Source of the DNA: Massilibacteroides vaginae
Lineage (GTDB): Bacteria > Bacteroidota > Bacteroidia > Bacteroidales > Tannerellaceae
Assembly (NCBI RefSeq): GCF_900178525.1
Contig: NZ_FXDJ01000006.1
Coordinates: forward strand, 1-64,000
Direction of reading: 5' to 3'
DNA length: 64,000 nt
Under the pieces are notes generated by a model. The model was not told where the DNA came from and searched no databases. It was given only the letters and a program-made list of their open reading frames with translations. This document shows, piece by piece, positions 1,312 through 46,201 of the stretch. The position numbers and the translations under genes were made by a program. Each line of letters begins with the position of its first letter. Position 1 is the first letter of the stretch.

Positions 1312-1426
1312 TTTTTTACAATACTATATGAAAAAAAAATATATCCTTTATTTTTCAAAATATATCCTTTATTTTTCCGAAAATAACCTTTATGTTTTTT
1401 GATAGGTATAATAAGCTGATTATCAG
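1312..1426 (+). repeat. 22-nt iterated intergenic element, copy A
   Basis: The element starts with TTTTTTACAATACTATAT, then has three iterated AT-rich units (two with core ATATCCTTTATTTTTC, one with AACCTTTATGTTTTT) spaced 21-23 nt, and ends about 30 nt later with TGATTATCA. The same order of blocks occurs at 46088-46201 (same orientation) and at 35985-36096 (reverse orientation). It lies about 180 bp beyond the ridA stop. Confidence 0.85.
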
Positions 1427-1546
1427 AGATGTAAAAATGCATAAAAAACCATACCTTGTTTTAGCTTTTAAACAGGAAAATATCATCAAAAATAATTCTC
1501 AAAACAGCGACGGGCTAAATTTAAATTGGCTCTAACTGAAAAGCAT

Positions 1547-1579
1547 TAAAAAAGGTGATTGCACAACGGCAACCACCTT
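1547..1579 (-). terminator. Intrinsic terminator of ridA
   Basis: On the minus strand an 11-12-bp imperfect stem (AAGGTGGTTGCC paired with GCAATCACCTT) is followed by a run of T. It lies 28 bp after the ridA stop codon. Confidence 0.75.
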
Positions 1580-1606
1580 GAAACAAATCCCCCTGATCTG
1601 TATATA

Positions 1607-1984
1607 TTACTTGACCGCAATAATTTCTATTTCTACTAACGCATTTTTGGGAAGGGTTTTGACCGCAACGGCCGAACGCGCAGGATATGTGTCTTTGAAT
1701 TGGGTTGCATACACTTCATTTACTGTTCCAAAATCACCCATATCAGCAAGAAAGACGGTTACTTTTACAACATCTTCAATAGCATAACCGGCTTCGGCCA
1801 ATACCGCATGGATATTTTTAAATGCCTGTTCTGTCTGTCCTTTAACATCTTGTGCGGCAAATTCTCCACTTTCCGGAACAAGGCCTAACTGTCCGGAAGC
1901 AAAAAGCATATTTCCGGCTTGTATGGCCTGACTATAGGGTCCAATGGCTGCCGGTGCATTTTTTGTTACAATAATTTTTTTCAT
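1607..1984 (-). CDS. ridA: RidA family enamine/imine deaminase
   Basis: A 125-aa protein of the RidA/YjgF family, which hydrolyses reactive 2-aminoacrylate and related enamine/imine intermediates released by PLP enzymes and so protects cells from them. The family start motif (APAAIGPYSQAI, residues 10-21) is present, as is the active-site segment around Arg103 in YPARSAVAVKTLP, the arginine that binds the substrate carboxylate in active RidA proteins. Length is typical; the active form is a homotrimer in the family. It is followed by its own terminator and sits 99 bp after rlmB, so it may be read from rlmB or from its own promoter. Confidence 0.93.
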   Translation of the reverse strand: MKKIIVTKNAPAAIGPYSQAIQAGNMLFASGQLGLVPESGEFAAQDVKGQTEQAFKNIHAVLAEAGYAIEDVVKVTVFLADMGDFGTVNEVYATQFKDTYPARSAVAVKTLPKNALVEIEIIAVK

Positions 1985-2083
1985 ACGATTATAGTTTTTT
2001 TATATTAAGGTAGTATGGAACTCACATTATCATTCACGTTAGCGTAAACGATCGTTTTGCCTGTTCGTTTCATATACGTTTTT

Positions 2084-2833
2084 TTATTTTTCTTCCTGAT
2101 TGATACGTTGCCGCACTACTTCATACACTAAGATAGAAGAAGCGACAGAAACATTGAGTGAACCAATTTTTCCAAATTGAGGTATTTTCACCATATAGTC
2201 GGCAATGCGTAAATTTTCGTTGGCAACACCTGTATCTTCAGCTCCTACAACAATCGCGACCGGTCCATCATACGAAACTGAGGTATAAAGTTCGGTTGCT
2301 TTTTCTGTTGCCGCGTATACTTTCACACCACTGGCTTGCAAAAAACGTATAGCCTCGTTTATACTTTTTTCCTTACATACAGGCAAAGTGTGAAGTGCTC
2401 CTGCAGAAGTCTTGATCGCATCGGCATTCACGGTTACACTTCCACGCGATGGTATTACTATCGCATCTGCACCTGCGCATTCGCAAGTACGAGCTATGGC
2501 ACCAAAATTACGCACATCGGTTACTCCATCTAATAATACGATAAAGGGACTCCTTCCCTGTTCATATAGAAATGGAATTATATCTTCCAACTTTTGATAG
2601 GTAACCGACGAAATAAAAGCGATAACTCCCTGATGATTCTTTCGCGTAATGCGGTCTAATCTTTCAGGTGGCACACGCTGTATGGGGATGTCCCGACCTC
2701 TTAACACATCTAATAATTCTTTAGACAATTCATTTTTCATGTCCCTGCGAACAAGAATTTTATCTATTTCCTTATCTGCCTGAACGGCTTCGATAACGGC
2801 ACGGGTACCAAAGATTAATTCATTCTCTTTCAT
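2084..2833 (-). CDS. rlmB: 23S rRNA Gm2251 2'-O-methyltransferase RlmB
   Basis: A 249-aa SpoU/TrmH-type methyltransferase. The N-terminal substrate-binding domain (about 1-80) starts with the family motif IFGTRAVIEAV. The trefoil-knot catalytic domain carries motif 1 (LDGVTDVRNFGAIARTC), motif 2 (IVVGAEDTGV) and motif 3 (IPQFGKIGSLNVSVASSIL). The full-length two-domain layout fits RlmB, which methylates G2251 in the peptidyl-transferase P loop, better than the shorter TrmH or TrmL. It begins 23 bp after recN and is probably cotranscribed with it. Substrate specificity is inferred from family membership. Confidence 0.9.
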   Translation of the reverse strand: MKENELIFGTRAVIEAVQADKEIDKILVRRDMKNELSKELLDVLRGRDIPIQRVPPERLDRITRKNHQGVIAFISSVTYQKLEDIIPFLYEQGRSPFIVLLDGVTDVRNFGAIARTCECAGADAIVIPSRGSVTVNADAIKTSAGALHTLPVCKEKSINEAIRFLQASGVKVYAATEKATELYTSVSYDGPVAIVVGAEDTGVANENLRIADYMVKIPQFGKIGSLNVSVASSILVYEVVRQRINQEEK

Positions 2834-2856
2834 TTATCTTATTTCTTTTTTTATCA

Positions 2857-4515
2857 TCAAATTCCGAGTAGATCACGCGCGTTAGCTACCGAGGCCTCAG
2901 TCAGCGTTGCACCACTTAACATTCGTGCGATTTCCGACACACGTTCATTTTGATCCAGTTTTCGTATCGATGTGATGGTACGATCTGCCGAATCATGTTT
3001 ATATACATAATAATGACTCATTCCTTTTGCCGCAATCTGCGGAAGGTGAGTAATTGCCAAAACCTGCATATTATCGCCCAGCCCACGCATAATATCACCC
3101 ATTTTATCAGCAATATCTCCGGAAACTCCGGTATCTACTTCGTCAAAAATAATGGATGGCAAGGCTGTTGATCCGGCAATCATCGCCTTTATACAAAGCA
3201 TAAGCCGGGAAATTTCGCCTCCTGAGGCTGTTTCTGCCACAGGCTGCATAAGTCCGTTTTTATTTGCAGAAAAAAGAAACCGAATTTCATCGATCCCATT
3301 CATATCCGGTTCTTTCCGCAGAGATAATTCAACCGAAAAACGCATATTGGGCATACCCAAGGGTGCAATCATCTTCACTAATTCACGGGAAATCTGTTCG
3401 GCTGTCTGCTGTCTGGCTTCATGTATTTTTTTTGCAAGGGAAAGAACTGTTGTATATTGAGTTTTGATCTGTTTGTCGAGTTCTTCAATTTGTTCATCAA
3501 AAGATTCAATTGCCAATAATTGTTTTTGGTAGGTTTCCAGCAAAACAATCAGTTCATCGATCGAAGAAACACGATGTTTTTGTTCTAATGAATAAAACAA
3601 ATTCAACCGTTCGTTAACATAATCCATTCGTTCCGGATTATATTCTATGTTTTCTTGTTGGCCTTCGGCGTCTGCAGCCAGGTCATCCAAATCAATATAG
3701 ACCGAACGTAAACGCTCTTCCATTTGTTTTGATTTCGGATAGAAGCGTTCAATAGATCCTACCAATGCTATCGCATCTTTCAGCCCACGTACAACTCCTT
3801 GCTCTTCACCGTTAAGCAACTCATGCAATTTATATAGTGAGGTTTTTATTTCTTCAGCATGCGTCAAAAGAGTCTGTTCATTTTCCAGTTCTTCCTGTTC
3901 TCCGGCATAAAGATTTGCCTCTTCCAATTGTTCCGCCTGAAAGCGGATATAATCTTCTTCTTGCTTTGCCTGTGCCGCTTTATCCGATAGTTCTTTGCGT
4001 TCTTTTCGCAATCGGGTATAAGCCAGAAACTCCTCATGATAGTGTGACAGAAGTTGTTTGTTGTTCGCCATCACGTCAACTACACGCAACTGGAACATAA
4101 TATCTCCCAATAACAGGTTTTGGTGCTGCGAATGAATATCTATCAGGTATGCGCCAAGTTCTTTCATCACCGAAAGAGACACAGGCGAATCGTTCACAAA
4201 AGCACGGGATTTACCGGAAGCATATAATTCTCTTCTGAAAATACAAACTTCGGGATCGTATTCCAGATCATTCTCCTGAAAAAAGAAGGCTAATTCGTAT
4301 TTCTTAATATCAAAGATGGCTTCTATCGTGCATTTATCCGCTCCCAACTTAATACTTTTCCCATCTGCCCGTTGTCCTAAAACAAGAGCGAGTGCACCTA
4401 AAATTATAGATTTTCCGGCACCAGTCTCACCGGTAATAACAGAGAATTTATCATTGAAGTCTATCTCCAGATTATCTATCAATACAAAATTCTGTATAAG
4501 TAATGACTTTAACAT
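2857..4515 (-). CDS. recN: DNA repair protein RecN
   Basis: A 552-aa SMC-like ATPase acting in double-strand break repair. The Walker A motif GETGAGKS is at residues 29-36. The middle third is a long coiled coil rich in Glu/Gln/Lys. The ABC signature (TASGGEISRLMLCIKAM) and Walker B (PSIIFDEVDTGVSG) lie near the C-terminus, so both ATPase halves are complete. The start at 4515 gives MLKSLLIQNFVLIDN, the usual RecN beginning. It is 9 bp downstream of porD in a compact minus-strand run coaBC-porD-recN-rlmB. Confidence 0.95.
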   Translation of the reverse strand: MLKSLLIQNFVLIDNLEIDFNDKFSVITGETGAGKSIILGALALVLGQRADGKSIKLGADKCTIEAIFDIKKYELAFFFQENDLEYDPEVCIFRRELYASGKSRAFVNDSPVSLSVMKELGAYLIDIHSQHQNLLLGDIMFQLRVVDVMANNKQLLSHYHEEFLAYTRLRKERKELSDKAAQAKQEEDYIRFQAEQLEEANLYAGEQEELENEQTLLTHAEEIKTSLYKLHELLNGEEQGVVRGLKDAIALVGSIERFYPKSKQMEERLRSVYIDLDDLAADAEGQQENIEYNPERMDYVNERLNLFYSLEQKHRVSSIDELIVLLETYQKQLLAIESFDEQIEELDKQIKTQYTTVLSLAKKIHEARQQTAEQISRELVKMIAPLGMPNMRFSVELSLRKEPDMNGIDEIRFLFSANKNGLMQPVAETASGGEISRLMLCIKAMIAGSTALPSIIFDEVDTGVSGDIADKMGDIMRGLGDNMQVLAITHLPQIAAKGMSHYYVYKHDSADRTITSIRKLDQNERVSEIARMLSGATLTEASVANARDLLGI

Positions 4516-4524
4516 AGTTTCGGA

Positions 4525-5427
4525 TTATTTCTTTAAAGGCTCCAATCTTGTTGACTCCGCAGGATATAGTTCAGAAAGAGTTTTATAGCCTTCTTGTTTC
4601 TCTTGCATGGTTGCTTTGGAATAAATCGCAACCAACTCGTCTAACTTGGCATCGGAGAAGACAGACAACAACACAGAAGATGGTCTACTGCTTTTCAGTT
4701 CGGTCAGCGCAGGCAATAATGAAATAATCGTAGTACGTCCACGATCTGCATTTGCAGCCATCTCATCCAATCCTTTGCGATGATATGTATACCACATATT
4801 ACGGAATCCTTCACCGGTGTTTTCCGTCAGAGCTGTTGCTAATGCGTGCCTGTTTCGTTGGCTATCAAAAGGCTTCCAGCCATTCCAGGAGGCTTCAGAT
4901 TGCGCCAAAGTTACTATCTGCATGGCTTGTTGCAAGAAAGCATTTCCCCCTAATGGAGAAAAACTATCAAAATCCAGTCCGAGTATAAGATATACATAGA
5001 AGACAATCGTTGCTGTCAGGTTATTTTCCAGCGTATTTTCCGTGTATTGCAGTTGTTCGAATTCCACATAATTGAAATCTAATTGTGTGTCACGGAAATT
5101 TAACAATGTAGTTGTATAGGAGGAGTTATAAGCCGGTCGCCGGGCCTGCACCAACAATTCAGCTTTAAAACTATCATCCGAAGGACGCTCGTTTATTGTA
5201 AGATTTATCGTACAGTCAATCCGTTCATTCACGGCGAAAGTTGCATCAGTCCATTTCTTATTATTCACAAACTCAGTTAAAGCATTCTCCAGAGTGGTAA
5301 AAACTTGTTTGCTTGATCCCTGAATTTTGTCACTGTTAATTGTCACCCGGGCATTTATCTCCTGTGCCTTAACCGAACAGGTAAAACAAACAAACAGAAT
5401 AGGAATAATAATTTTTAATGCCTTCAT
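4525..5427 (-). CDS. porD: PorD-like protein (DUF4835)
   Basis: A 300-aa exported protein of the DUF4835 family, named PorD in the type IX secretion system of Bacteroidetes. A signal peptide (MKALKIIIPILFVCFTCSVKAQ) is followed by a soluble domain with family features such as NERIDCTINLTINERPS and YVYLILGLDFDSFSPLGG. The start codon overlaps the coaBC stop by 4 nt, a translational-coupling arrangement. PorD genes sit between coaBC and recN in many Bacteroidetes whether or not a full secretion system is near. No other T9SS gene lies in this window, so a role in secretion is inferred from the family name; a periplasmic or outer-membrane location is likely. Confidence 0.82.
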   Translation of the reverse strand: MKALKIIIPILFVCFTCSVKAQEINARVTINSDKIQGSSKQVFTTLENALTEFVNNKKWTDATFAVNERIDCTINLTINERPSDDSFKAELLVQARRPAYNSSYTTTLLNFRDTQLDFNYVEFEQLQYTENTLENNLTATIVFYVYLILGLDFDSFSPLGGNAFLQQAMQIVTLAQSEASWNGWKPFDSQRNRHALATALTENTGEGFRNMWYTYHRKGLDEMAANADRGRTTIISLLPALTELKSSRPSSVLLSVFSDAKLDELVAIYSKATMQEKQEGYKTLSELYPAESTRLEPLKK

Positions 5428-6626
5428 AATAACAAAGTCGCCAATTTATCTACAATATCAACAGCCACCTCTTGTTTCAGTTTTAAGGGAAACTCAGCGA
5501 TTGCTCCTTTTTGATCTATTATTGATATTTTATTCGTATCACAACGGAATCCCGCACCTTTCTCTTTTAAGGAATTCAAGACGATAAAGTCCAGATTCTT
5601 TCGTTTCAACTTATCTAAAGCATGTGCTTCTTCGTTGTTTGTTTCCAAAGCAAAACCAACCAGCACCTGTCCTTCTTTTTTAATTGCGCCTAAAGAAGCG
5701 GCAATATCTTTATTCGGAGTAAGTTGCAACGTAAGTTCGGCAGATGATTCCCGCTTGATCTTTTTATCCATGCTAACAGCCGGTTTATAATCAGCAACAG
5801 CAGCACAAAGTATACCTGCATCCACATGCGGAAAAACCGACATTGCCTCGTTGTACATCTCGTCTGCCGATTCCACATCTATGCGTGTTACGTTAGGATG
5901 AGCGATCGTTTCCGACACCGGACCGGATATCAAAATAACTTCCGCTCCTCGTTCAGCACAAGCCTTTGCCAACGCATATCCCATCTTTCCTGACGAATAA
6001 TTACCTATAAAACGTACGGGATCTATCTTTTCATATGTAGGACCTGCAGTTATTACAATTTTTTTTTCACGAAGGTCTTTCTGCTCTGCAAAAAAATGCT
6101 CCAAAACACATATAATACTATCCGGTTCTTCCATACGCCCCTTACCTATCAGATGGCTCGCAAGCTCACCTTCCGCTGGTTCAATAATACGATTTCCGAA
6201 AGTACGCAAGCGATCCAGGTTTTGTTGTGTTGTTGGATGGGCAAACATATCCAGATCCATTGCCGGTGCGATAAATACCGGAGCTTTGCATGAAAGATAA
6301 GTTGTAATCAGCATATTATCCGCAATTCCATTCGCTATTTTCCCGATTGTAGCTGCTGTAGCAGGAGCAATCAACATAGCATCTGCCCATAGTCCCAGAT
6401 CAACATGACTATTCCACGAACCGTCGCGATTTGAAAAAAACTCACTGATAACCGGGGCATTGCTTAATGTGGAGAGCGTCAGAGGTGTTATAAATTCTTT
6501 TCCGGCAGGTGTAATAACCACCTGAACATTAGCGCCCTTCTTCACCAACCCACGAATCAGATAAGCGGCTTTATATGCCGCGATACTACCCGTTACGCCT
6601 ACAATAATATTTTTACCCTTCAGCAT
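5424..6626 (-). CDS. coaBC: Bifunctional CoaBC (4'-phosphopantothenoylcysteine synthase/decarboxylase)
   Basis: Two steps of coenzyme A synthesis. The N-terminal CoaC flavoprotein (about 1-180) has GSIAAYK at the FMN site, the catalytic-His segment NSHVDLGLWADAML, the Asn motif APATAATIGKIANGIADN and the PAMDLDMF loop. The C-terminal CoaB part starts with VITAGPTYEKIDPVRFI and the NYSSGKMGYALA loop and forms the CTP-activated phosphopantothenoylcysteine. I place the start at 6626 (MLKGKNIIVGVTGS, 400 aa) because the 21 codons before it do not match the family and read through an intergenic segment. The 3' end overlaps porD by 4 nt. Confidence 0.94.
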   Translation of the reverse strand: MLKGKNIIVGVTGSIAAYKAAYLIRGLVKKGANVQVVITPAGKEFITPLTLSTLSNAPVISEFFSNRDGSWNSHVDLGLWADAMLIAPATAATIGKIANGIADNMLITTYLSCKAPVFIAPAMDLDMFAHPTTQQNLDRLRTFGNRIIEPAEGELASHLIGKGRMEEPDSIICVLEHFFAEQKDLREKKIVITAGPTYEKIDPVRFIGNYSSGKMGYALAKACAERGAEVILISGPVSETIAHPNVTRIDVESADEMYNEAMSVFPHVDAGILCAAVADYKPAVSMDKKIKRESSAELTLQLTPNKDIAASLGAIKKEGQVLVGFALETNNEEAHALDKLKRKNLDFIVLNSLKEKGAGFRCDTNKISIIDQKGAIAEFPLKLKQEVAVDIVDKLATLLL

Positions 6627-6649
6627 TACAAACCTATTTGTTTGAAAAG

Positions 6650-7804
6650 TTATAATCTTAAGCTCAATATTTCCTTTGCAGCCTGCCAATCAATATCTGC
6701 ATGTTCTCCCAACTGCCAGTTCATTTCACGAACATGTTGTACAAGAGAATTCAAATCATTCTCCTTAATTCCAAATTCTGATAAACGAGTAGAGAAACCC
6801 ATTGAACGGAAGAAAGCCTCAACAGCATCTATTGTCTCGTCAACCAGTGCAGACTCGCTGTTCGGCATAATATTAAAGACAGAAAGTCCAAGTGAAATAA
6901 TTTTATCTTTCTTCTCTTTCTTTTTATATTCCATCACACCCGGCAAAATCACTGCCAGTGTTTGTGCATGATCTAAGCCAAACAATGCAGTAAGCGAATA
7001 ACCAATACGATGAGACGACCAATCCTGAGGCACACCCTGTCCAATCCATGAATTTAACGCGTTAGACGCAGCCCACATCAGATTAGCACGAATAGCATAA
7101 TCATTTGGTTTTTTCAATACTTTTAGCCCTTCTTCTTTGATAATACACATCAAAGATTCAGCAAAAGCATCCTGCACGCGGGCATTTACCGGATAAGTTA
7201 GATATTGTTCGATCACATGCATAAAAGAATCCACTACTCCATTCGCGACCTGTTTGAGCGGTAAAGAATAAGTAACTTCTGGATCAAGAATAGCAAATTG
7301 AGGAAAAACAAGAGGTGATGCAAATCCAAGTTTTAATTTTGAGTCGTTTTTAGAGATAACAAAACGTTCATTCATTTCAGATCCTGTAGCTGCAAGTGTT
7401 AAAACACATCCTAAAGGCAATGCTTTTTTTATGGCGGCACCTTTCCTTAAAATGTCCCATGGATCCTCTCCTTCATAACAAGCTGCAGACGCTATAAATT
7501 TAGTAGCATCTATTACAGACCCACCACCTACAGCTAACAGAAAATCAATTTTTTCGTTCTTTACCAGCTCCACCGCCTTCATGCAGGTGTCATAATCAGG
7601 GTTTGGTTGTATTCCTCCGAACTCGAAAGTTTCGATACCGGACAAAGCGTTCTTTACCTGATCATATATGCCATTCTTTTTTATACTTCCACCACCATAA
7701 AGGATCAACACCTTTACACCGGCAGGTAATTGAGCCGTTAATCGGCTGATCATTCCTTTTCCGAAAATTATTTTTACCGGATTGCAAAACTCAAAATTAT
7801 TCAT
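6650..7804 (-). CDS. Iron-containing alcohol dehydrogenase (YqhD/BDH type)
   Basis: A 384-aa group III dehydrogenase that reduces aldehydes to alcohols with NAD(P)H. The nucleotide-binding GGGSVIDATKFIA loop is near residue 98. The metal ligands are in VVDSFMHVIEQYL (Asp and His), SSHRIGYSLTA (His) and GLDHAQTLAVILPG (His). The sequence resembles the NADPH-dependent YqhD/butanol dehydrogenase branch. Its physiological substrate cannot be told from sequence; scavenging short-chain or reactive aldehydes is the usual suggestion. It lies 4 bp after the DnaQ-like gene and 23 bp before coaBC, in the same direction. Confidence 0.88.
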   Translation of the reverse strand: MNNFEFCNPVKIIFGKGMISRLTAQLPAGVKVLILYGGGSIKKNGIYDQVKNALSGIETFEFGGIQPNPDYDTCMKAVELVKNEKIDFLLAVGGGSVIDATKFIASAACYEGEDPWDILRKGAAIKKALPLGCVLTLAATGSEMNERFVISKNDSKLKLGFASPLVFPQFAILDPEVTYSLPLKQVANGVVDSFMHVIEQYLTYPVNARVQDAFAESLMCIIKEEGLKVLKKPNDYAIRANLMWAASNALNSWIGQGVPQDWSSHRIGYSLTALFGLDHAQTLAVILPGVMEYKKKEKKDKIISLGLSVFNIMPNSESALVDETIDAVEAFFRSMGFSTRLSEFGIKENDLNSLVQHVREMNWQLGEHADIDWQAAKEILSLRL

Positions 7805-7808
7805 CTTC

Positions 7809-8579
7809 TTATTTTGAATTAAATCCCCTCAATTTAATCTCTGTTAATATCCGTTTTGTATTTAACGGGAAATCACCACTCATGATCCACCCATAATAGC
7901 CGGGATCTGTTTGTAAAACGTCTGCAACCAAACGCCCTTTATACTTTCCGAAATTAATAACCTCTTCCCCCTTATCATTATATACCATCCGTCCTGCGAA
8001 ATCCACATTATTCGTAAAACTGGAAAATTTAGAAAGAAAGTTTATGTCATTTTCCAAGTCCGGATAACGATCCAACTGTGACTTCAAAACTTCATAAGTA
8101 GCCAACGTATCGGCTTCAGCGGTATGTGCATTTTCTAATGTCTTATCACAATAGAATTTATATGCGGCGGCCAATGTACGCTGTTCCATTTTATGGAAAA
8201 TTGTTTGTACATCAATAAATTTACGCTTGTTCAAATCCACATCCACTTCAGCACGCAGAAACTCTTCGGCCAGCAAAGGGATATCAAAACGATTTGAATT
8301 ATAACCGGCCAGATCACATCCTTCTAATTGAGAGGCAAGAGATTTCGCTATCTCTTTGAAAGTCGGGCAATCCTTTACGTCATCATCCGATATTCCATGA
8401 ATAGCGGTAGCTTCCGGCGGTATAGGCATTCCCGGATTAACCCGACGTGTTTTTGATTCTTCTTTTCCATTGGGATAAACTTTCATAAAAGATATTTCGA
8501 CGATTCGATCTTTCACTATGTTGATCCCGGTGGTTTCCAGATCAAAAAACACCAACGGATTTTTCAAATTCAATTGCAT
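7809..8579 (-). CDS. DnaQ-like 3'-5' exonuclease
   Basis: A 256-aa DEDDh exonuclease like the proofreading epsilon subunit of DNA polymerase III. The motifs are FFDLETTG (ExoI, residues 11-18), GYNSNRFDIPLL (ExoII) and HTAEADTLATYEVL (ExoIII, with the H-x4-D spacing of the DEDDh class). A C-terminal extension (about 205-250, INFGKYKGRLVADVL...PGYYGWIM) resembles the small domain found after DnaQ domains in exodeoxyribonuclease X-like proteins. It follows dnaN by 15 bp; that neighbourhood with the sliding clamp fits a replication or repair nuclease. Whether it is the true epsilon or an accessory nuclease is open. Confidence 0.88.
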   Translation of the reverse strand: MQLNLKNPLVFFDLETTGINIVKDRIVEISFMKVYPNGKEESKTRRVNPGMPIPPEATAIHGISDDDVKDCPTFKEIAKSLASQLEGCDLAGYNSNRFDIPLLAEEFLRAEVDVDLNKRKFIDVQTIFHKMEQRTLAAAYKFYCDKTLENAHTAEADTLATYEVLKSQLDRYPDLENDINFLSKFSSFTNNVDFAGRMVYNDKGEEVINFGKYKGRLVADVLQTDPGYYGWIMSGDFPLNTKRILTEIKLRGFNSK

Positions 8580-8594
8580 TATATTTTGTCTTAT

Positions 8595-35380: not shown

Positions 35381-35941
35381 ATGAAAAGAATTTATTTACT
35401 GCTGTTCTTGGTCGCTTTCGTTAGCAATGCGTTCAGTCAGAATAGACTTTCGCTCTACATAGGAAGCGCAAACCAATATGCCGCTGTGGAATTATCTGAT
35501 TTCCGCCAACGGCTATGTGTGGAGTATGGTATACCTGTTTCTTCATTAGATGATTATTACCACCGGTGCGGAAACGATTGGGGAAATGTAGGAATCGCGC
35601 TTGAAATTGCGAGAACCTCCGGAAGAAGCATGAGAGATGTTTGTAATTATTACGATCGCTACCGTCGCTACGGGTGGGATCGCGTTGTACTGGAAATAGG
35701 TATCAAACCCGGTTCTCGCTATTACAAACCGTTTTATGACAGAATACATCATCACCATGATGTTTGGGATCAACACTATTACAATTACTGTGAAAGACAC
35801 GGTAAGCACCACCCTAAAAATCATAAGTACAAAGCCAAACACAAGAAAAAGTATGACAATGGATACCATAGAGGATATGATAAACGATACAAGAAAAAGT
35901 ATCATGATGATGACGACGACGACGACGATTATGATGACTAA
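35381..35941 (+). CDS. Secreted His/Lys/Asp-rich protein
   Basis: A 186-aa protein with a signal peptide (MKRIYLLLFLVAFVSNAFSQ). Residues 30-115 are a conserved small domain (LSDFRQRLCVEYGIPVSSLD, RCGNDWGNVGIALEIARTSG, CNYYDRYRRYGWDRVVLEIG). The rest is low complexity: clusters of His (HHHHDVWDQHYYN, KHHPKNHKYKAKHKKK), then Lys/Tyr repeats and an end of eight Asp (DDDDDDDDYDD). It could bind metal ions or calcium salts; no enzyme motif. It starts 16 bp after the broken lipocalin-like gene. I recognise only a hypothetical family. Confidence 0.65.
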   Translation: MKRIYLLLFLVAFVSNAFSQNRLSLYIGSANQYAAVELSDFRQRLCVEYGIPVSSLDDYYHRCGNDWGNVGIALEIARTSGRSMRDVCNYYDRYRRYGWDRVVLEIGIKPGSRYYKPFYDRIHHHHDVWDQHYYNYCERHGKHHPKNHKYKAKHKKKYDNGYHRGYDKRYKKKYHDDDDDDDDYDD

Positions 35942-36244
35942 ATTGACCCTTCCGGGGATAAATTTTAGCCTATTTACACCAATCTGATAATCAAGCCGTT
36001 AGATACACCGAAAAACATAAAGGTTATTTTTGAAAATATAAAGGATATATTTTCAAAAATAACCTTTATGTTTTTATAAAGATAGTAATATAAAAATCGC
36101 TTGTAAAAATCACGCTGTTTATAGGGCTTCCAACTTACCCATTCACTTCGTATTTATTTCCCTTTTGAAACTACATTTTTTCCTGTCATCTCATAATCCG
36201 TATTCAGTCCCGCTTTTTCCGGCTTGGGTAAATTTTAACCCAAC
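35942..36244. other. Spacer holding the reversed repeat copy B
   Basis: 303 bp with the 22-nt iterated element at 35985-36096 and no gene. Confidence 0.6.
35985..36096 (-). repeat. 22-nt iterated intergenic element, copy B (perfect palindrome)
   Basis: Same family as copies A and C but in the opposite direction. On the minus strand it starts TTTTTATATTACTATC and ends TGATTATCA. Unlike A and C, the left unit is turned round, giving a perfect 29-bp inverted repeat (36011-36039 with 36047-36075) around a 7-nt loop. It starts 44 bp after the stop of the His/Asp-rich gene. Confidence 0.85.
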
Positions 36245-39266: not shown

Positions 39267-40628
39267 ATGAAACTCCAAAATTTATTCATGACGACATCGC
39301 TTATTGCATTCGGAATTATTAGCTGCAATAACGAAGATTATGACCTTCAAAACAAAGGTGACGGCACGGATGGCGAAGAAACGTATATGAGCTTAACATT
39401 ATCTTTTCCTAAGACAGACGGACCTCAATTCCGTGCCACCGGAGATAATAATGCCACTTTAGAGGAAACGGCATTAGACAGAATTGATGTGTTTATTTTT
39501 AACTCTAACACCGGCTTTATGGTAAAAAACGCCGTGTTGAATGCTTCCAACTTTGATCAGATGGCATCTACCTCTTCAGAAGATGTTTGGAAGGCTAAAA
39601 CAACGATAGGCACAACGACCGGACAGAAAACCATTTTCGTAGGTATTAACTTGCCGGTAACTTTCGCACAGGGATTAAATAATACATCGCTTGCTAATTT
39701 TAATGATATAGCACATACCTTAAACATAAGCGAATTGGTTACAACCCAAGGTTTAGCCATGTTTAGTGCAAAAGGTACAACCAGCGAACTTAAACCTATA
39801 GGAGACCCTGCCTACAACACCAATAATGTACTTAAAATTCCAATTAAGCGAATGGTAGCTAAAATAACCGTAGAAGAAGGTGAAAACATGGTTATCAATG
39901 GTGCGGGTAAGTTGGATAATCTGAGCTTCGCGATAAGCAACATAAACAAAAAAATGTACTTAGTGCCTAAAACAGATGGTAGCGACCCCAATTATGCAGC
40001 CAATACATGGCTGGCGGGCGATTTTATTAGCGCAGTTAACACACCGGGAGGTGCGGGAGACGGTTTTATTCGTATTGATTCGGCTAAGACAGAAGTGAAA
40101 AAGCTGAAAACGCTTTATGCGACTGAAAACACATCTGTTAATCATTGGAAAGAAGAAATTACACGGGTTATAGTTAGAGCAACTTTTGTGCCGGAAAAAA
40201 TTACTGATCTCCAGGGTGCGAATTATGTTCAGATAGCAAACCCCAATAGTTCTCCAACTACATTCTGGACAGTCTTGCTGCAAAATGGTTTTAAATATTT
40301 CTTCTTAAACGAAAGTACGGCTAATGCTTATAAAGCGGCCAATCCGGGTAGTATTAAATCGGCTGCTTACACAAACGGTTATTGTTATTACGATATGTAC
40401 CTGAACAAAGACGGATACTTTCAAGGCAATATCGTAACGGCTAAAAAGTGGGATGTGTTCCGAAATGATTATTACCGTTGCCGCATAACGAACATACTTG
40501 CTCCCGGACGTCCAACGGAAAATTTAGTGGATCCTAAAACGCCGCCGGCAGTTGAAACAGACCTTCAGTTTGATCTTGACATTTTATTCTGGAATCTTAT
40601 TACCGGCGATTATTCGCTTGAACCTTAA
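39267..40628 (+). CDS. Major fimbrillin (Mfa1-like) of pilus operon 2
   Basis: A 453-aa lipoprotein precursor with Cys20 in GIISC. FRATGDNNATLEETALDRID gives Arg56-Ala57, the same R-A-T-G-D motif as in the operon 1 pilin. The next part, DRIDVFIFNSNTGFMVKNAV, and TGQKTIFVGINLPVTF are typical N-domain strands; IKRMVAKITVEEG is the family 'KR..AKI' segment; the end is DILFWNLITGDYSLEP. It is longer than the operon 1 pilin by about 65 residues. First gene of the operon; a shaft subunit by family. Confidence 0.83.
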   Translation: MKLQNLFMTTSLIAFGIISCNNEDYDLQNKGDGTDGEETYMSLTLSFPKTDGPQFRATGDNNATLEETALDRIDVFIFNSNTGFMVKNAVLNASNFDQMASTSSEDVWKAKTTIGTTTGQKTIFVGINLPVTFAQGLNNTSLANFNDIAHTLNISELVTTQGLAMFSAKGTTSELKPIGDPAYNTNNVLKIPIKRMVAKITVEEGENMVINGAGKLDNLSFAISNINKKMYLVPKTDGSDPNYAANTWLAGDFISAVNTPGGAGDGFIRIDSAKTEVKKLKTLYATENTSVNHWKEEITRVIVRATFVPEKITDLQGANYVQIANPNSSPTTFWTVLLQNGFKYFFLNESTANAYKAANPGSIKSAAYTNGYCYYDMYLNKDGYFQGNIVTAKKWDVFRNDYYRCRITNILAPGRPTENLVDPKTPPAVETDLQFDLDILFWNLITGDYSLEP

Positions 40629-40667
40629 CCGGGAAAAATTACACATTCCTATATGAATGTATGTTTC

Positions 40668-40698
40668 AACAAGGGAGAAATAAAACCTCTCCCTTGTT
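40668..40698 (+). promoter_or_regulatory. Hairpin between major pilin and anchor (operon 2)
   Basis: A perfect 11-bp stem, AACAAGGGAGA / TCTCCCTTGTT, with a 9-nt loop, 40-70 bp after the pilin stop. It is followed by a run of A, not T, on the coding strand. Same position as in operon 1 but a different sequence. Confidence 0.75.
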
Positions 40699-40737
40699 AA
40701 AAAAAGAGCCTCGTAAATAATTAAATACAAAAACAAC

Positions 40738-41706
40738 ATGGGAATACTATCTAACTTTAAGTTCTCCGCATGGTTCGTCTTGCTGCTAATCACGTCTTCA
40801 TGCATTCGGGAAGATCTTTCTGATTGTCCTGTGAAAATGGAGAAACTCCAAGTGGCTTTTTCATTCGACACACCGGCAGGACCGCGTAACATAGATCCCG
40901 CCGAGCTTAAAATAGCGCACCTTTACATATTTGATGTAGACGGAAATTACGTAAGCACCGTTACTTACCAAAATCCGCAACTTTATCACAATTATCCGAT
41001 AGAGGTTGATCTCCTCCCGGGCGAGTATGAATTTATTGTATGGATGAATACAGCAGAATATTTTGACGTATTGTCTGTCGATTCAAACGAAAAGCTCAGC
41101 AACCCGGACCGACACGAAGATATTATAAAGTTAGCAGTTCCGTCTTTGGGATATATTACATCTGAAATTCCTTTAATTATGTTTGGCGAAGTGAGTAACC
41201 AGCAGATTACCAACGACAATCAGATTATAACGATTCCGCTTGTACAAAACACAAACACAATTAATGTTACGGTTAAAGGATTGCCGCAAACCGGTCATGA
41301 GTACTATCAGGTAATTAGTGACAAAAATGCATACGAATCGTTTCAAAACAAACCTGTTGCAGGCGAAGAGATCAGCTATGTGGCTCCAATGAATCTGAGA
41401 GGAACAAAAAGTGTCGTAAATGAATCTACTGATCTTGTTTCCTCCTTAAGGGTACTTAAACTCTACAAGGAAAACCAACCTAAACTGGTTTTATGGAATG
41501 AAACTGAAAAGATAGATCTATATCCGGGGAAAAGTGGTTTATCGAATGATTTAATTAAAATGATCACCGAGAAATATCCGGATGTCGACTTTAAAACTAC
41601 CCACGTATTTGATATCATTCTTTATTACAATACGAACATGGAAGTTACTGTTGACATACAATACTGGAACGACTATGAAACGGATTATACAATAGAGCCT
41701 GATTGA
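40738..41706 (+). CDS. FimB/Mfa2-family pilus anchor lipoprotein (operon 2)
   Basis: A 322-aa lipoprotein, Cys22 in TSSCIREDLSDCP, the same SCI...DCP signature as the operon 1 anchor. Strand segments include LQVAFSFDTPAG, IAHLYIFDVDGNYVST and the YPIEVDLLPGEYEFIVWMNT block typical of Mfa2; the end is ITVDIQYWNDYETDYTIEPD-like. The outer-membrane lipid anchor of the pilus by family. It starts 109 bp after the pilin, with the hairpin between. Confidence 0.85.
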   Translation: MGILSNFKFSAWFVLLLITSSCIREDLSDCPVKMEKLQVAFSFDTPAGPRNIDPAELKIAHLYIFDVDGNYVSTVTYQNPQLYHNYPIEVDLLPGEYEFIVWMNTAEYFDVLSVDSNEKLSNPDRHEDIIKLAVPSLGYITSEIPLIMFGEVSNQQITNDNQIITIPLVQNTNTINVTVKGLPQTGHEYYQVISDKNAYESFQNKPVAGEEISYVAPMNLRGTKSVVNESTDLVSSLRVLKLYKENQPKLVLWNETEKIDLYPGKSGLSNDLIKMITEKYPDVDFKTTHVFDIILYYNTNMEVTVDIQYWNDYETDYTIEPD

Positions 41707-41741
41707 AATAAAAATGTCTATATAACAAAATAAATAAGCAT

Positions 41742-44393
41742 ATGAAATCTATTAATCATTACCTTTTAGTTATTGTGCCTGTTCTTTTTATGGTAGCGTG
41801 TAGTAACGAAATAGAACTCAGATCTAACTCATCAAATACAGAAGATATAGACGTTAATTTCAACCTGTCACTACCGGCACAAGACGAGCCCTCTGTGGAA
41901 CAGGCAGGGACTCAGAATGAAAACACAATTCTAAAAATCAACATCCTTGCGTATAAAGTTAATTCGGCAGGGAAAGAACACTTCGATTATCACACTGAAG
42001 GTGTACTGCAATCCGGTGCAGGAACTGCACTTCAAACATACAGCGCGAAAGTAAAAGTAAGATCCTACAAACAGCGTTTTGTTATTATTGCTAACGCACG
42101 TGACGAAGTAACGCAAATTTTACACACTTACGCCGGCCAACCAATTGAAAAAATTGAAATGCTGAAGATGTTGGAATTTACAAACGCAGCACCGGATCAT
42201 AAATGGAATATTAGTAACACAGCCGGGTTTACTCCTATTCCGATGTGGGGCGAAACACAGACTCCCCAACAAATTACCACCGCAACCGCAAGCATAGATA
42301 AAATTCCAATGCTTCGTATGGTAGCAAAAGTTGATGTCTTATTGGTCGATCAGGCATCCGGCAAGAAAATAAAAGACCATTTTAAGTTGAGCGAAATCTA
42401 CCTTTACAATATAAAAGAAAATAGTCGCATCGTTCCGGATACAAACACGTTAGAACTTTATTCCAACAACAGACTCATTGTTACAAAGCCAACATTAGCA
42501 ACATCACAACAGAACTGGTTCGGACCAATTAAATATGTTGCAGACAGTGAGACTTCTTTACTTAACACAATATATCTTTCAGAATCCCGGGCAGTTGTTC
42601 TCAGTTCAGATTTTTTAAACGCTACAGGGTTTGTTATAGGAGGTTATTATAGTGAGAATGGCATTGCCTGGGATTCTGCTCCCTCCTATTACAGATTAGA
42701 CATAATGACAGGCGATAAAACCGAAACGCGCGATATTTTACGCAATCATAGTTATCAACTCAATATCATTCAAGTAAACGGATCGGGACACCCCACGGCC
42801 GAGAAGGCTTGGAACAGGGGCACGGATATGAATTTAATGGTTGCCGACTGGAGCACGCAGGTTATTTCTGAAAATGTGCTGAAAAGACAGTTACATCTTT
42901 CGGCCACTGAAGCTGAAATTTCCGACGTAAGTGCATCAAGAATCTATTTTTGGAGTGACCAGAAAGAGGTTAAAGTGGAAAAACAAGGGTATATCGGATA
43001 TTCGAATACAAGCCCGTTTAATGTTAATGATTTTTTTGATGATTTAGCCGGTTCGCCTCTAACAACGAATTTTCAGTTCAATCCGGTAAGCGGACATGGG
43101 CATATGGACATAAGTACAATAAGCACACAGAAAACGACAAATGACATACGCAAAATCTACCTTAACGCCGGAGGGCTTAAGCGGGAAATAATTGTAAAGA
43201 CGAATATCTCAGACCCCCCGAAAACGTTTTTAGAGATCCCTTGGGTAGGAACCTTTCACCGTAAAAACGAAGTAGGAGAACGCGTTATTTACGCTGACCA
43301 TATAGGCGCATGGAGTGCTGAGGTAAATGATCCCACCGGAGAAGGACATTTCGTTGTTTTAAGTAAATCCCGGAGTGCGGACAAGTCTTTACGCACCGAA
43401 AACCCGGGAGATGCTGAAAATTATCCGGTAGTGGACGGTAAAAAAACAATAAGCGGAAATGGTCGTATTTACTTTCGCGTAGGGTTGACTTCAACCTACC
43501 AAAGCACGCCGACTAAGCCGGTACGTTACGCTACAATTAAGCTTACTCATTCAAAAGGTTATTCTACTATCTATGTACGCCAGGGAGAAGATGCAGATTA
43601 TTTAATGCGAATGAACGACCCGACTGTTGGGGTTAATCCCTCTATCCCCAAACGCCCATTTGCGAAAAAATTTAGTCCATACAATTTAACCGATCCTCAG
43701 GAAAGACCCGGGCGCGTAGGCGATTCAATCAATAGTAAATACGTATTTACTCAGTTTCCAACTCAGGCGGGGTATTATTTTCAGTTTGCTCGGACCTATG
43801 CCTGGTATCCTGATGTTGAAGCTCCGGAAAATTGGTACTACAATAGACCCAATGCACTATGGTATTTACACAAAAACGACTGGGAAAGCGCTCCTGCCGG
43901 ATATCGCCGTCCAAATGAGGGAAGCATTAGTAGTTATGCAACGTCCACGTCCAGCAGTGATTTAGAAATTAGCCAATCCCTATTATTAGATCCCAAGAAA
44001 AGAAGAGAAAATGATGATGCAAATACCTTGTGGGGATATTATGCTGATGGTTTTTTTGATCGCAGACCTATTCGAAAAAGCCTAACGGGCACAGAAGCCT
44101 CTACAGTTGGAAGTGGGGCAAAGCTGGCTTATATCGGACAGTTACATTTTAATCCCTACACAAATGCATCATTGTTCTTTCCGGCTGCCGGATATCGTGC
44201 TTCCAGCGAATCAAATCTTTTATATCCTATTAAAGGCGGGCTGAGGAGAAACGGAGAACGAGTTTATTTCTGGTCAACAGCCACACGCAACGATGGTAAT
44301 AGTTGGTTGTATAGAAGTTCCAAAGAAAACAAAGATGTTATGAGTGCCAGTTTACTTTATGGTTACAACATTCGGTGCGTAAAAGATGAATAA
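41742..44393 (+). CDS. Large pilus tip-like subunit with lectin-like C-terminus (operon 2)
   Basis: An 883-aa lipoprotein (Cys20 in FMVAC). The N-terminal 360 residues are fimbrillin-like (TILKINILAYKVNSAGKEHF, IPMLRMVAKVDVLLV). Then come beta-sandwich linkers (about 370-620). The C-terminal 200 residues contain APAGYRRPNEGS, the block SLFFPAAGYRASSESN, VYFWSTATRNDGNSWLYRS and the end YGYNIRCVKDE, the pattern of FISUMP/C-type-lectin-like modules found in tip adhesins. There is no clear Arg processing site. The stop overlaps the next gene's longest frame by 8 nt. Confidence 0.75.
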   Translation: MKSINHYLLVIVPVLFMVACSNEIELRSNSSNTEDIDVNFNLSLPAQDEPSVEQAGTQNENTILKINILAYKVNSAGKEHFDYHTEGVLQSGAGTALQTYSAKVKVRSYKQRFVIIANARDEVTQILHTYAGQPIEKIEMLKMLEFTNAAPDHKWNISNTAGFTPIPMWGETQTPQQITTATASIDKIPMLRMVAKVDVLLVDQASGKKIKDHFKLSEIYLYNIKENSRIVPDTNTLELYSNNRLIVTKPTLATSQQNWFGPIKYVADSETSLLNTIYLSESRAVVLSSDFLNATGFVIGGYYSENGIAWDSAPSYYRLDIMTGDKTETRDILRNHSYQLNIIQVNGSGHPTAEKAWNRGTDMNLMVADWSTQVISENVLKRQLHLSATEAEISDVSASRIYFWSDQKEVKVEKQGYIGYSNTSPFNVNDFFDDLAGSPLTTNFQFNPVSGHGHMDISTISTQKTTNDIRKIYLNAGGLKREIIVKTNISDPPKTFLEIPWVGTFHRKNEVGERVIYADHIGAWSAEVNDPTGEGHFVVLSKSRSADKSLRTENPGDAENYPVVDGKKTISGNGRIYFRVGLTSTYQSTPTKPVRYATIKLTHSKGYSTIYVRQGEDADYLMRMNDPTVGVNPSIPKRPFAKKFSPYNLTDPQERPGRVGDSINSKYVFTQFPTQAGYYFQFARTYAWYPDVEAPENWYYNRPNALWYLHKNDWESAPAGYRRPNEGSISSYATSTSSSDLEISQSLLLDPKKRRENDDANTLWGYYADGFFDRRPIRKSLTGTEASTVGSGAKLAYIGQLHFNPYTNASLFFPAAGYRASSESNLLYPIKGGLRRNGERVYFWSTATRNDGNSWLYRSSKENKDVMSASLLYGYNIRCVKDE

Positions 44394-44412
44394 TCAAAAA
44401 AAAATTACGTTT

Positions 44413-46053
44413 ATGAAACTAACAATAAATTTAAAAAAATATTATCTGCTTGGGTTTATTTTGCTCCTGCTAACCGCTTGTAGTGAAGAATATGACTTAA
44501 CAGATATGAAACCGGTAGATACTGCTGAGAGCACCGTGTTAGTAGAGCTTTTCACCCATACGGGTGATTATCAAACCCCTACAAATCAGCAAACAAGAAC
44601 ATTTAGAGGAGGTTTATCGGAGGCGATGCCTTGGGTAATCGTATTCTTGGGAGATACCGATCAGGCAATGTTTTCGCAAGTTGCTCGCGCAACAAAATCC
44701 GGGAATAAGATGGTTGTGTCGCTCACTGAAACAACGGTTAAAACACGGGTTATGATTATCGCGAATCCGCCGGCTGTTTTTTTCGACGGAACCATTGATA
44801 ATACACCTTTAAGTAAAGATGCGCTTACCTCAAAATTAACAGGCAAAACGTACAATGAGGCTTTATCAATACTCAACACCCCTAAACTCCAGTCGCCGCA
44901 AAAAAGCATACCGTATGCCGCAGAAGATATTCCGGCCACGCTATCCATAACACTCAATAAGATTGATAACAATACGGCTATAGGAACTGCCGCAAACAAA
45001 TTGAGCTTAATTCGTGTGGTTGCGAAAGTAACCGTAGAGAACAATTCGCCCGATTTCGTGCTTGAAGGTTTTTCGGTTATCGGAGCCTCGCAGTATGGAC
45101 GTTTAATTCCGTCGAATACATTTACAACTCAGGTAGATAAGGTGAATTATTTAGCAGCCCCTCCCCACGATTCAATTTGCGGAATCTCATCGGGTGAGCC
45201 TATTTACATATACGAATCGCTTGCCGGAGAATCTTCTGTTATCGTAAAAGGAAGCTACAAGGGGCAATCCGGCTATTATAGCTTGTTATTTCAGGACGCA
45301 AACAAAAATTCGTTCAACCTCATACGCAACAAATGGTATCAGTTTAAGCTAAAAGAAATTAATACCGCAGGCTATAAAACGATTGGTGAGGCGTTAAATG
45401 CTCCGCCCTCCAATATATTCTCAACAATAACTGTTATCGATCAAAACGCTATGGAGATTACCGATAATGGTCAGTACTTCATTGGGTTAAGCAATTCTGA
45501 ATTTATTGTATATTCAAACACAAAACAAGACAACCTAACGGCTGTAACAGTTTCTTATAACGCTCCTACCGGAGTTCTTGCACAAACAAAAGTAGTTGCT
45601 GCATCCCCTGCCGGATCAATAACGATAGCTAAAGGATTAGATCAGCCTAACGGAACGAACAACACGAGTGAAGTAAAACTAAATTTAGCCGCAAATTTCT
45701 CTAAAGGTCAAATCAGCATAGCAGTAGGCAATTTAGAGCGAATTGTACAAGTAAAACGAATGTCGCCAATCAATTGGATAGGAGAAATCGTTACATTCAA
45801 GGACAATTATGTATCGGCTAAAATAGAAAGTCAAGGAATTACCGATAGCACCTGGCTTCATTTATCAACAGATTTGCTACATTTCGTCGACACTGAAGTG
45901 GTACGTTTAGATACACCGGGAACAATTTACCTGAAAACGAGTATGAATCCACTCCTAACAAGAATACGAAAAGGAGGAATAATCTATCTATCACACAAAG
46001 AAAAAAACGGACGTATAAAATTATACCTTGAGCAAGGATCGCGAAATTTTTAA
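44413..46053 (+). CDS. Fimbrillin-family accessory subunit (pilus operon 2, last gene)
   Basis: A 546-aa lipoprotein from the ATG at 44413 (MKLTINLKKYYLLGFILLLL; Cys23). The start at 44386 would give nine extra residues with no lipobox advantage. Candidate cut sites follow Arg in NQQTRTFRGG. The segment FQDANKNSFNLIRNKWYQFK with NTAGYKTIGEALNA matches the last gene of operon 1. The C-terminus is a beta-sandwich (about 430-546). Its stop is 35 bp before the iterated repeat copy C. Confidence 0.72.
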   Translation: MKLTINLKKYYLLGFILLLLTACSEEYDLTDMKPVDTAESTVLVELFTHTGDYQTPTNQQTRTFRGGLSEAMPWVIVFLGDTDQAMFSQVARATKSGNKMVVSLTETTVKTRVMIIANPPAVFFDGTIDNTPLSKDALTSKLTGKTYNEALSILNTPKLQSPQKSIPYAAEDIPATLSITLNKIDNNTAIGTAANKLSLIRVVAKVTVENNSPDFVLEGFSVIGASQYGRLIPSNTFTTQVDKVNYLAAPPHDSICGISSGEPIYIYESLAGESSVIVKGSYKGQSGYYSLLFQDANKNSFNLIRNKWYQFKLKEINTAGYKTIGEALNAPPSNIFSTITVIDQNAMEITDNGQYFIGLSNSEFIVYSNTKQDNLTAVTVSYNAPTGVLAQTKVVAASPAGSITIAKGLDQPNGTNNTSEVKLNLAANFSKGQISIAVGNLERIVQVKRMSPINWIGEIVTFKDNYVSAKIESQGITDSTWLHLSTDLLHFVDTEVVRLDTPGTIYLKTSMNPLLTRIRKGGIIYLSHKEKNGRIKLYLEQGSRNF

Positions 46054-46087
46054 ACAAGGCAAAAAACAGCCTTATAAAAGAGGCGTG

Positions 46088-46201
46088 TTTTTTACATTAC
46101 TATATAAAAAAAAATATATCCTTTATTTTTCAAAATATATCCTTTATTTTTCGAAAAATAACCTTTATGTTTTTATCAAGATACAATACATTGATTATCA
46201 A
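46088..46201 (+). repeat. 22-nt iterated intergenic element, copy C
   Basis: Nearly identical to copy A: TTTTTTACATTACTATAT, two units with ATATCCTTTATTTTTC, one with AACCTTTATGTTTTT, then a 30-nt tail with TGATTATCA. It is 35 bp after the stop of the last pilus gene and may act as the operon end. Confidence 0.85.

What the first reader, a model, noticed from the sequence alone, without database searches (positions are those of the whole stretch)
1312..46201. A 112-115-bp intergenic repeat family built from ~22-nt units, three copies in the window
Copies at 1312-1426 (+), 35985-36096 (-) and 46088-46201 (+) share an ordered set of blocks: TTTTTTACATTACTAT, two or three AT-rich units spaced 21-23 nt (cores ATATCCTTTATTTTTC and AACCTTTATGTTTTT), and a tail ending in TGATTATCA. 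Both outer blocks are conserved in all three, so this is a defined mobile or structural element, not chance AT-rich sequence. Copies B and C lie 35-44 bp after stop codons. Tandem-repeat MITEs made of short bricks are known from Porphyromonas (BrickBuilt); relation to those is inference.
Basis: partly seen in the sequence, partly recalled or inferred. Interest (0 to 1): 0.7.

Follow-up and report, generated by a model that had tools for sequence, protein, structure and literature searches.

The report
Dispersed transposon-borne 21-bp site arrays
The three repeats belong to a family of more than a hundred short dispersed elements in this bacterium, some of them clearly miniature transposons, that carry a strictly spaced array of 21-base sites; the array is better preserved than the transposon around it and the copies rarely lie close together, which suggests that an unknown protein uses them.

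Summary
The 112-115-bp blocks are the core of a dispersed family: 132 copies located (26 in 544 contiguous kb; 106 elsewhere), about 177 if the density of that stretch holds for 3.71 Mb. The core is three units spaced 21 bp (206 of 206 spacings between neighbouring exact units; 42 of 42 in a sister species), each AAAA-N-ATA-[WCCTT]-TAT-N-TTTT, some with the centre flipped in place, plus a degenerate fourth unit and a TGATTATCA-like palindrome. The best-kept copies are ~293-bp MITEs: terminal repeats matching the one ISL3-family IS found in the genome, which is interrupted, and 8-bp target duplications (5 of 33 copies, 0.47 expected). Unlike an ordinary MITE the interior is better conserved than the shell (mean core divergence 0.13 where shell divergence is 0.49), and copies avoid each other (no gap under 7 kb in 544 kb; 2 of 101 elsewhere against 21.7 expected), also in a sister Massilibacteroides. 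Not BrickBuilt; coding disfavoured. Best reading: a MITE-spread, selectively maintained binding array for an unidentified DNA-binding protein. What that protein does is inference.

The parts
1312..1426 (+). Copy A, conserved core (block 0, three 21-bp units, variable spacer, TGATTATCA palindrome)
   Evidence: nhmmer E 1.3e-21
1312..1327 (+). Copy A block 0: TTTTTTACAATACTAT, degenerate fourth unit
   Evidence: logo
1336..1356 (+). Copy A unit 1 (ATA-TCCTT-TAT, direct)
1357..1377 (+). Copy A unit 2 (ATA-TCCTT-TAT, direct)
1378..1398 (+). Copy A unit 3 (ATA-ACCTT-TATG, near-invariant unit)
1417..1425 (+). Copy A tail palindrome TGATTATCA
35985..36096 (-). Copy B, conserved core, with unit 1 inverted (pattern A- T+ A+); between convergent genes by my gene calls
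36012..36032 (-). Copy B unit 3 (ATA-ACCTT-TATG on the - strand)
36033..36053 (-). Copy B unit 2 (ATA-TCCTT-TAT on the - strand)
36054..36074 (+). Copy B unit 1, inverted relative to units 2 and 3
35985..35993 (-). Copy B tail palindrome
46088..46201 (+). Copy C, conserved core, 35 bp after the end of the ORF 44386-46053
46111..46131 (+). Copy C unit 1 (direct)
46132..46152 (+). Copy C unit 2 (direct)
46153..46173 (+). Copy C unit 3 (ATA-ACCTT-TATG)
46192..46200 (+). Copy C tail palindrome TGATTATCA

Best explanation
The repeats are copies of a dispersed element whose working part is an array of three (with a degenerate fourth) 21-bp pseudo-palindromic sites, AAAA-N-ATA-[W-CCTT]-TAT-N-TTTT, in helical register (21 bp, two turns) and followed by a short palindrome. 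Shown: in the best-kept copies the array sits inside a ~293-bp MITE with ISL3-type terminal inverted repeats and, in several, 8-bp target duplications; the one ISL3-family IS found in the genome has matching ends and an interrupted transposase. Shown: the array is better conserved than the shell around it; in units 1 and 2 conserved and free positions alternate with a 21-bp period; neighbouring exact units are never 20 or 22 bp apart; the 26 copies on the contiguous stretch are intergenic; copies rarely lie within 7 kb of each other (none within 12 kb in the sister species' list). Inferred: each unit is the footprint of a dimeric DNA-binding protein (centre read in either orientation), three adjacent units bind it cooperatively on one face of the helix, and the MITE served as a vehicle that spread these platforms. 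Inferred, less sure: the platforms have a host role in chromosome structure or long-range control, which would account for both the constraint and the spacing.
For: Family size and density. Register: 206 of 206 and 42 of 42 spacings of neighbouring exact units are 21 (20 and 22 would have been counted, larger shifts would not), whereas the distance from unit 3 to the palindrome varies (33 in 76, 32 in 22 of 98). Footprint: two linker positions at 0.39-0.43 bits beside arm positions mostly of 1.7-2.0 bits in units 1 and 2. Found without the core: a query of 99 bases of right shell gave 44 rows; of the 30 with loci, 27 have unit 3 at 18-21 of 21 and L199 has the core by profile; the other two are the L181 remnant and the weak hit L203. 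Core against shell. Ends and duplications. IS with matching ends. Spacing. Sister species with the same core and register. Copies present in G001 and absent from the matching G000 site.
Against: No binding protein was identified and there are no expression or binding data. In the look that did not start from G000 copies, none of 6 G001 copies with a flank matching C4 has a G000 copy at the same gene boundary, so retention of single sites across species is weakly supported and turnover is high. Most copies were found by their core (30 by BLAST with the whole core; the rest mainly by unit 3), so 'the core survives where the shell is gone' is partly built in; a copy that lost both would be invisible. 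No ISL3 shell is recognised on either side in 29 of 103 copies (10 of the 12 with an inverted first block), nor, by eye, in G001, so MITE origin is shown only for part of the family. The closest pair does not show the contrast (L165/L172: core 2 of 61, shell 1 of 141), and gap columns in the aligned core rise to 3.4 per pair in the most diverged bin against 13.9 in the shell.
Confidence: 0.65

Rival explanations
1. A purely selfish MITE: the central array is a cis-acting transposition enhancer or target-immunity site for the ISL3-type transposase (or another one), and the spacing is laid down at insertion by immunity. No host function.
For: TIRs, 8-bp duplications, IS with matching ends; high turnover between species; mutual exclusion over kilobases resembles target immunity as known, from recall, for Tn3, Tn7 and Mu.
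Against: The IS itself carries no unit within one mismatch. G001 has the core and the spacing but no ISL3 match. Immunity at insertion does not by itself keep the core conserved afterwards, although ascertainment weakens that argument. I do not know of target immunity in ISL3 (recall).
Confidence: 0.23
2. Concerted evolution by gene conversion: copies recombine where they are alike, so the core stays uniform without any function.
For: Species-specific consensus (TTTATG in G000, TTTATA in G001).
Against: Variable linker positions lie next to nearly invariant ones with a 21-bp period; conversion tracts would homogenise both. It does not explain the spacing.
Confidence: 0.08
3. A structured RNA, transcription terminator or mRNA 3'-end element.
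For: Core edges lie nearer to gene 3' ends (median 96 bp, n=113) than to 5' ends (median 220 bp, n=91) by my gene calls, without a null model. Individual tails can fold into hairpins, and the alignment of all 103 copies gives a consensus fold of -17.3 kcal/mol made of pairing within the pseudo-palindromic array plus a 4-bp tail hairpin (no shuffle control).
Against: Units 1 and 2 are both direct in 76 of 103 copies, and the fold follows from units that are palindromic as DNA anyway; tail alone -2.2 and left arm 0.0 kcal/mol; no Rfam match in the window except three tRNAs; no significant orientation bias relative to tandem genes (19 same, 32 opposite, P 0.09); 9 of 26 C4 copies lie between divergent genes.
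Confidence: 0.1
4. An array of sites for a site-specific recombinase: 8-bp inverted arms around an asymmetric 5-bp centre, which would explain in-place flips and loss of close pairs.
For: Centres occur as TCCTT/ACCTT and as AAGGA/AAGGT in the same place between unchanged ATA and TAT; arrays of 2 and 4 exact units occur with 21-bp steps.
Against: 21 bp is short for a tyrosine-recombinase core (recall); no recombinase gene was sought; inverted pairs should survive at short distance, yet on C4 there is no pair of either orientation under 7 kb.
Confidence: 0.07
5. A small protein-coding gene made of 7-residue repeats.
For: One frame is open through the core in 69 of 103 G000 copies.
Against: The same frame is open in 4 of 28 G001 copies, where other frames are open instead (24 and 22 of 28); no 3-base periodicity of conservation (1.47, 1.56, 1.51 bits by phase).
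Confidence: 0.02

Closest known systems
Correia elements (CREE/NEMIS) of Neisseria
   Same: MITE (204 bp as first described), >120 copies, with an IHF (nucleoid protein) site demonstrated in a studied copy (review PMC10969869: passages only)
   Different: The passages seen report no tandem array of 21-bp units, no interior better conserved than the ends and no mutual exclusion
BrickBuilt MITE of Porphyromonas gingivalis
   Same: Bacteroidales, strictly intergenic, short tandem units inside a MITE (PMC4596501: abstract and passages)
   Different: 23-nt direct bricks (18 full repeats in BrickBuilt_5), TIRs resembling IS5-family ISPg1/ISPg9, 19 copies; here 21-bp pseudo-palindromic units, usually three, ISL3-type TIR
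ISL3-family insertion sequences
   Same: Ends GGGTCAAnnnGAAAATCCGGTTG of the best-kept copy match a 1405-bp ISL3-family IS in the same genome; 8-bp duplications in several copies
   Different: The IS contains no 21-bp unit; the array is an addition
REP/BIME repeats of enterobacteria (recall)
   Same: Many intergenic palindromic repeats bound by DNA proteins
   Different: REPs go with a Y1 (RAYT) transposase; no PF01797 match in this genome
Repressor operator arrays and stoperators of phages; parS/Noc sites (recall)
   Same: Palindromic sites in helical register, or dispersed sites for one protein
   Different: No sequence relation sought beyond this: the full L168 element matched no phage or plasmid record of the collections

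Membership tests
[quoted passage not shown]
   Three pairs at different places share 282-283 bp (L068/L109, L024/L109, the L080 pair); other pairs share shorter stretches and L006/L011 share 581 bp; 18 of 103 copies match the 300-position profile to within 15 positions of both ends
[quoted passage not shown]
   L168: GGGTCAAGAAGAAAATCCGGTTGACG ... TCGCCAACCGGATTTTCCGGTTGACCC; a strict search for both ends found 6 of 103 copies, so imperfect or lost in most
[quoted passage not shown]
   8-bp exact in 5 of 33 testable copies, null mean 0.47 (0 of 200 permutations as high), 4 at the identical offset; with one mismatch allowed 8 of 33 against 3.58, P 0.025
[quoted passage not shown]
   ISL3-family IS, C1:328912-330316, its end 91% identical over 23-24 bp to both ends of L168; transposase frame interrupted
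[quoted passage not shown]
   No shell on either side in 10 of 12 inverted-block copies; G001 outer arms differ by eye and no ISL3 match there
BrickBuilt | 23-nt direct repeats and TIRs of the IS5-family kind | tested here: not met
   21-bp units, ISL3-type TIR
REP/RAYT | Y1 transposase in the genome | tested here: not met
   PF01797: 0 matches; 5 of 14 control genomes positive
Structured RNA family | Rfam match | tested here: not met
   window only: three tRNAs and nothing else at gathering scores
Structured RNA family | Conserved fold beyond the DNA palindromes | tested here: inconclusive
   RNAalifold on 103 copies, no shuffle control
Protein-binding operator array | Periodic footprint in helical register | tested here: met
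Protein-binding operator array | A protein that binds it | not testable with these tools
   no binding data; candidate gene not identified

The most novel reading that the evidence does not exclude
A previously undescribed chromosome-organising (or long-range silencing) system: well over a hundred MITE-delivered, helically phased protein-binding platforms, kept mostly 7 kb or more apart along the chromosome, whose array is kept by selection while the vehicle decays and is replaced, in at least two species of the Massilibacteroides group.
Probability: 0.3. Interest if true: 0.88.

Novelty: new variant of a known kind. Interest (0 to 1): 0.64.

Why it matters
MITEs are usually read as decaying relics whose ends matter most (recall). 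Here only 18 of 103 copies keep both ends while the interior array stays in exact helical register, and copies exclude one another over kilobases in two species. That makes a direct test possible of whether a bacterial transposon family has supplied its host with genome-wide protein-binding platforms, or whether an element can space itself by immunity although the one matching transposase found is interrupted. Bacteroidales chromosome architecture is, as far as I know (recall), little studied.

Tried and rejected
Rfam on the window: only three tRNAs. Y1/RAYT transposase: none. RNA consensus fold: left arm 0.0, tail -2.2, whole -17.3 kcal/mol, the last made of the pseudo-palindromic array and a 4-bp tail hairpin; no shuffle control, so not excluded but not favoured. 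Small ORF: disfavoured. GC-skew polarity of orientation (as for KOPS-like sites): none, P 0.19 and 0.11. Orientation to tandem genes: a crude gene caller (16 same, 30 opposite) and a better one (19 same, 32 opposite, P 0.09) agree in sign; of the 11 tandem copies on C4, 9 are same and 2 opposite; no claim is made. One search's crude ORFs overlapped 7 of 98 copies; only the 26 C4 copies were placed with the better caller as intergenic. Phage and plasmid records: no match for the full L168 element; 3 viral contigs with one exact unit pair each were not followed. Order-wide: one unit pair in one of 392 other Bacteroidales genomes (G174), taken as chance since the reversed control also has one hit (G318). 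Papers: Massilibacteroides with repeat and intergenic, 0 papers; three further searches on MITE, binding sites, ISL3 and nucleoid proteins gave listings in which no title named this element; nothing wider about print is claimed. The L131/L122 and L061/C4 alignments were too diverged to show a base-exact empty site.

Rows dropped: one search examined 28 of the 44 rows; L199 and L203 were looked at later (L199 has a core, L203 none) and 14 rows without loci never. One search used the 100 listed rows (contigs C1-C3, C3 incomplete, exact matches only), second matches of one array removed, leaving 89 positions; one search repeats the test with 106 copies located outside C4. In one search, 24 of 110 G001 contig lengths were known, the others simulated; its 56 places are 55 and one, and about 7 of them are variant unit pairs of less certain kinship. 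One search used 42 of 103 copies (shell recognised on both sides). One search's listing was used only to find PMC4596501 and PMC10969869.
Full report
What is there. Copies A, B and C are at the stated coordinates. Aligned with further copies from the same genome (98, 103) they resolve into a core: a degenerate block, commonly CATTACTATAT, three contiguous 21-bp units, about 16 variable bases, and a short palindrome (TGATTATCA or TTGATTTTCAA). Each unit reads AAAA-N-ATA-[TCCTT or ACCTT]-TAT-N-TTTT with free linker bases between units. The centre occurs in either orientation between unchanged ATA and TAT: the commonest patterns of arrays with at least two exact units in G000 are T+T+A+ (46), T+A+A+ (19) and A-T-A+ (14); in G001 T-T+A+ (14). 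Copy B is A-T+A+.

How many. The motif TAACCTTTATGTTTTT with up to one mismatch has 187 matches in 3.71 Mb, the reversed control none. A scan of 544 contiguous kb of the window's contig with a profile of the core gives 26 copies at E<1e-3, 23 of them strong; that density would give about 177 in the genome. A further 106 copies were located on other contigs, not exhaustively. The genome-contig scan named only Massilibacteroides sp. STF2_31 (17 stretches); contig lengths there equal those of G001, so the window's genome is a congener of it by the tool's kinship. Of 40 genomes searched by BLAST, 2 matched, the own genome and G001. Of 393 Bacteroidales genomes, the exact unit pair occurs 254 times in the own genome and once in one of the 392 others; the reversed control also has one hit in one genome. 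G002, same genus, has none with up to one mismatch.

Part of the family is a MITE. Three pairs of copies at different places share 282-283 bp (L068/L109 88.7%, L024/L109 83.7%, the L080 pair 83.7%); other pairs share less, and L006/L011 share 581 bp. The ends are an imperfect terminal inverted repeat, best kept in L168; 18 of 103 copies match the profile to within 15 positions of both ends. Of 33 copies in which both ends could be placed, 5 have an exact 8-bp direct repeat there, against 0.47 expected when right flanks are exchanged between copies; 4 of the 5 lie at the identical offset. A search for DDE_Tnp_ISL3 found one transposase in the genome; the 1405-bp IS around it has 33-bp identical ends beginning GGGTCAAGTGGAAAATCCGGTTGG, 91% identical over 23-24 bp to both ends of L168. 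Its reading frame is interrupted, so this copy is probably not active. The IS contains no unit within one mismatch. G001 has no ISL3 match and G002 has two fragments.

It is not an ordinary MITE. Among 42 copies with shell on both sides, pairs with mean shell divergence 0.11, 0.21, 0.32, 0.40 and 0.49 (five bins) have mean core divergence 0.07, 0.10, 0.12, 0.12 and 0.13. To lessen the bias of having found copies by their core, I searched with 99 bases of right shell only (44 rows, 30 with loci): 27 of 28 examined have unit 3 at 18-21 of 21, the other being a 43-bp remnant in a susD-like gene; of the remaining two loci L199 has a core and L203, a weak hit, has none. Spacing of neighbouring exact units is 21 in 206 of 206 cases and 42 of 42 in G001, in runs of A and T where slippage should be easy. 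In units 1 and 2 two linker positions have 0.39-0.43 bits, arm positions mostly 1.7-2.0 (one 1.32, the N positions 1.1-1.2), and the flipping centre 1.1-1.6. Against this: the closest pair (L165/L172) has 2 core and 1 shell differences, gap columns appear in the core of the most diverged pairs (3.4 per pair against 13.9 in the shell), and part of the sample came by a whole-core search.

Copies avoid each other. In 544 kb the smallest distance is 7.05 kb. All 26 lie between genes by my own gene calls. Drawing 26 of 156 intergenic regions of at least 100 bp at random gave no draw of 20,000 with so large a minimum, and 7.4 gaps under 7 kb on average. Among 106 copies located elsewhere, 1 of 101 gaps is under 5 kb (16.0 expected for uniform placing) and 2 are under 7 kb (21.7 expected; 0 of 5,000 as few): the similar L080 pair at 3.3 kb and L196/L100 at 6.2 kb (an earlier, smaller list agrees). 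In G001, 56 listed places give 16 within-contig gaps, the smallest 12.1 kb; 7.9 gaps under 12 kb were expected in a simulation in which most contig lengths had to be assumed.

Evolution. G001 has the same core and register but its own consensus (TTTATA for TTTATG, tail TTGATTTTCAA) and, by eye, different outer arms. In G000, 12 of 103 copies have an inverted first block; of these 9 have units 1 and 2 inverted, 7 have the G001-like tail and 10 have no ISL3 shell on either side. Five G001 copies lie beside a gene whose counterpart lies beside a G000 copy, three in the same and two in the opposite orientation, but that look started from G000 copies. In the look at C4, which did not, none of six G001 copies with a matching flank (L061, L128, L129, L131, L132, L144) has a G000 copy at the same gene boundary; for L128 and L144 a G000 copy lies one gene away. 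L061 and L131 match on both flanks and have no element in G000. Sites therefore turn over fast, although the core is constrained.

Mechanism. The period, register, dyad symmetry and free linkers are what a dimeric DNA-binding protein on adjacent sites would leave. I infer cooperative binding on one face of the helix. I do not know the protein. Two readings account for the spacing: a host function that needs sites at intervals, or immunity of the element to insertion near itself. The first also accounts for constraint on the core after insertion; the second fits the turnover. I favour the first slightly. RNA, terminator, coding, gene-conversion and recombinase readings are weighed under rivals.

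Known families. BrickBuilt differs in unit, TIR and IS family (PMC4596501, abstract and passages). Correia elements are the nearest in kind, MITEs with a nucleoid-protein site in a studied copy (PMC10969869, passages). Comparison with target immunity of Tn3, Tn7 and Mu, REP elements, phage operators and parS/Noc sites is from recall.

Noticed in passing
L237:1412-2872 (G000 C1, about 328.9-330.3 kb): The one ISL3-family IS found, with interrupted transposase; its left end is preceded by two further partial copies of the end (GGGTCAAGTGGAAAATCC and a variant) and the whole is flanked by a ~22-bp direct repeat TTTTTTTTGCTCACTTTGAAGG.
   Followed up: partly
L068 and L070, about 500 bp downstream of the copies: 240 bp identical (100%) between two loci of contig C2, a different dispersed repeat.
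   Followed up: no
L167, L076 (G000) and L064, L158 (G001): A second short dispersed sequence (CCTGTTTAAATTTTGCTCGTTG / AAACAGGCTCTAA) seen by eye near copies in both species.
   Followed up: no
L167:1487-1527: 43-bp right-end remnant of the MITE read in frame into a susD-like coding frame that lacks its usual 5' part as far as I can tell by eye.
   Followed up: partly
G001 C103:59317, C32:24325, C46:85968: Variant unit pairs ATAACCTTTATRTCTCGGAAR... suggest a second array subfamily in G001.
   Followed up: no
window 35381-35941: The ORF before copy B ends in a run of GAT/GAC codons (acidic residues) after AAA/CAC-rich codons, read by eye.
   Followed up: no
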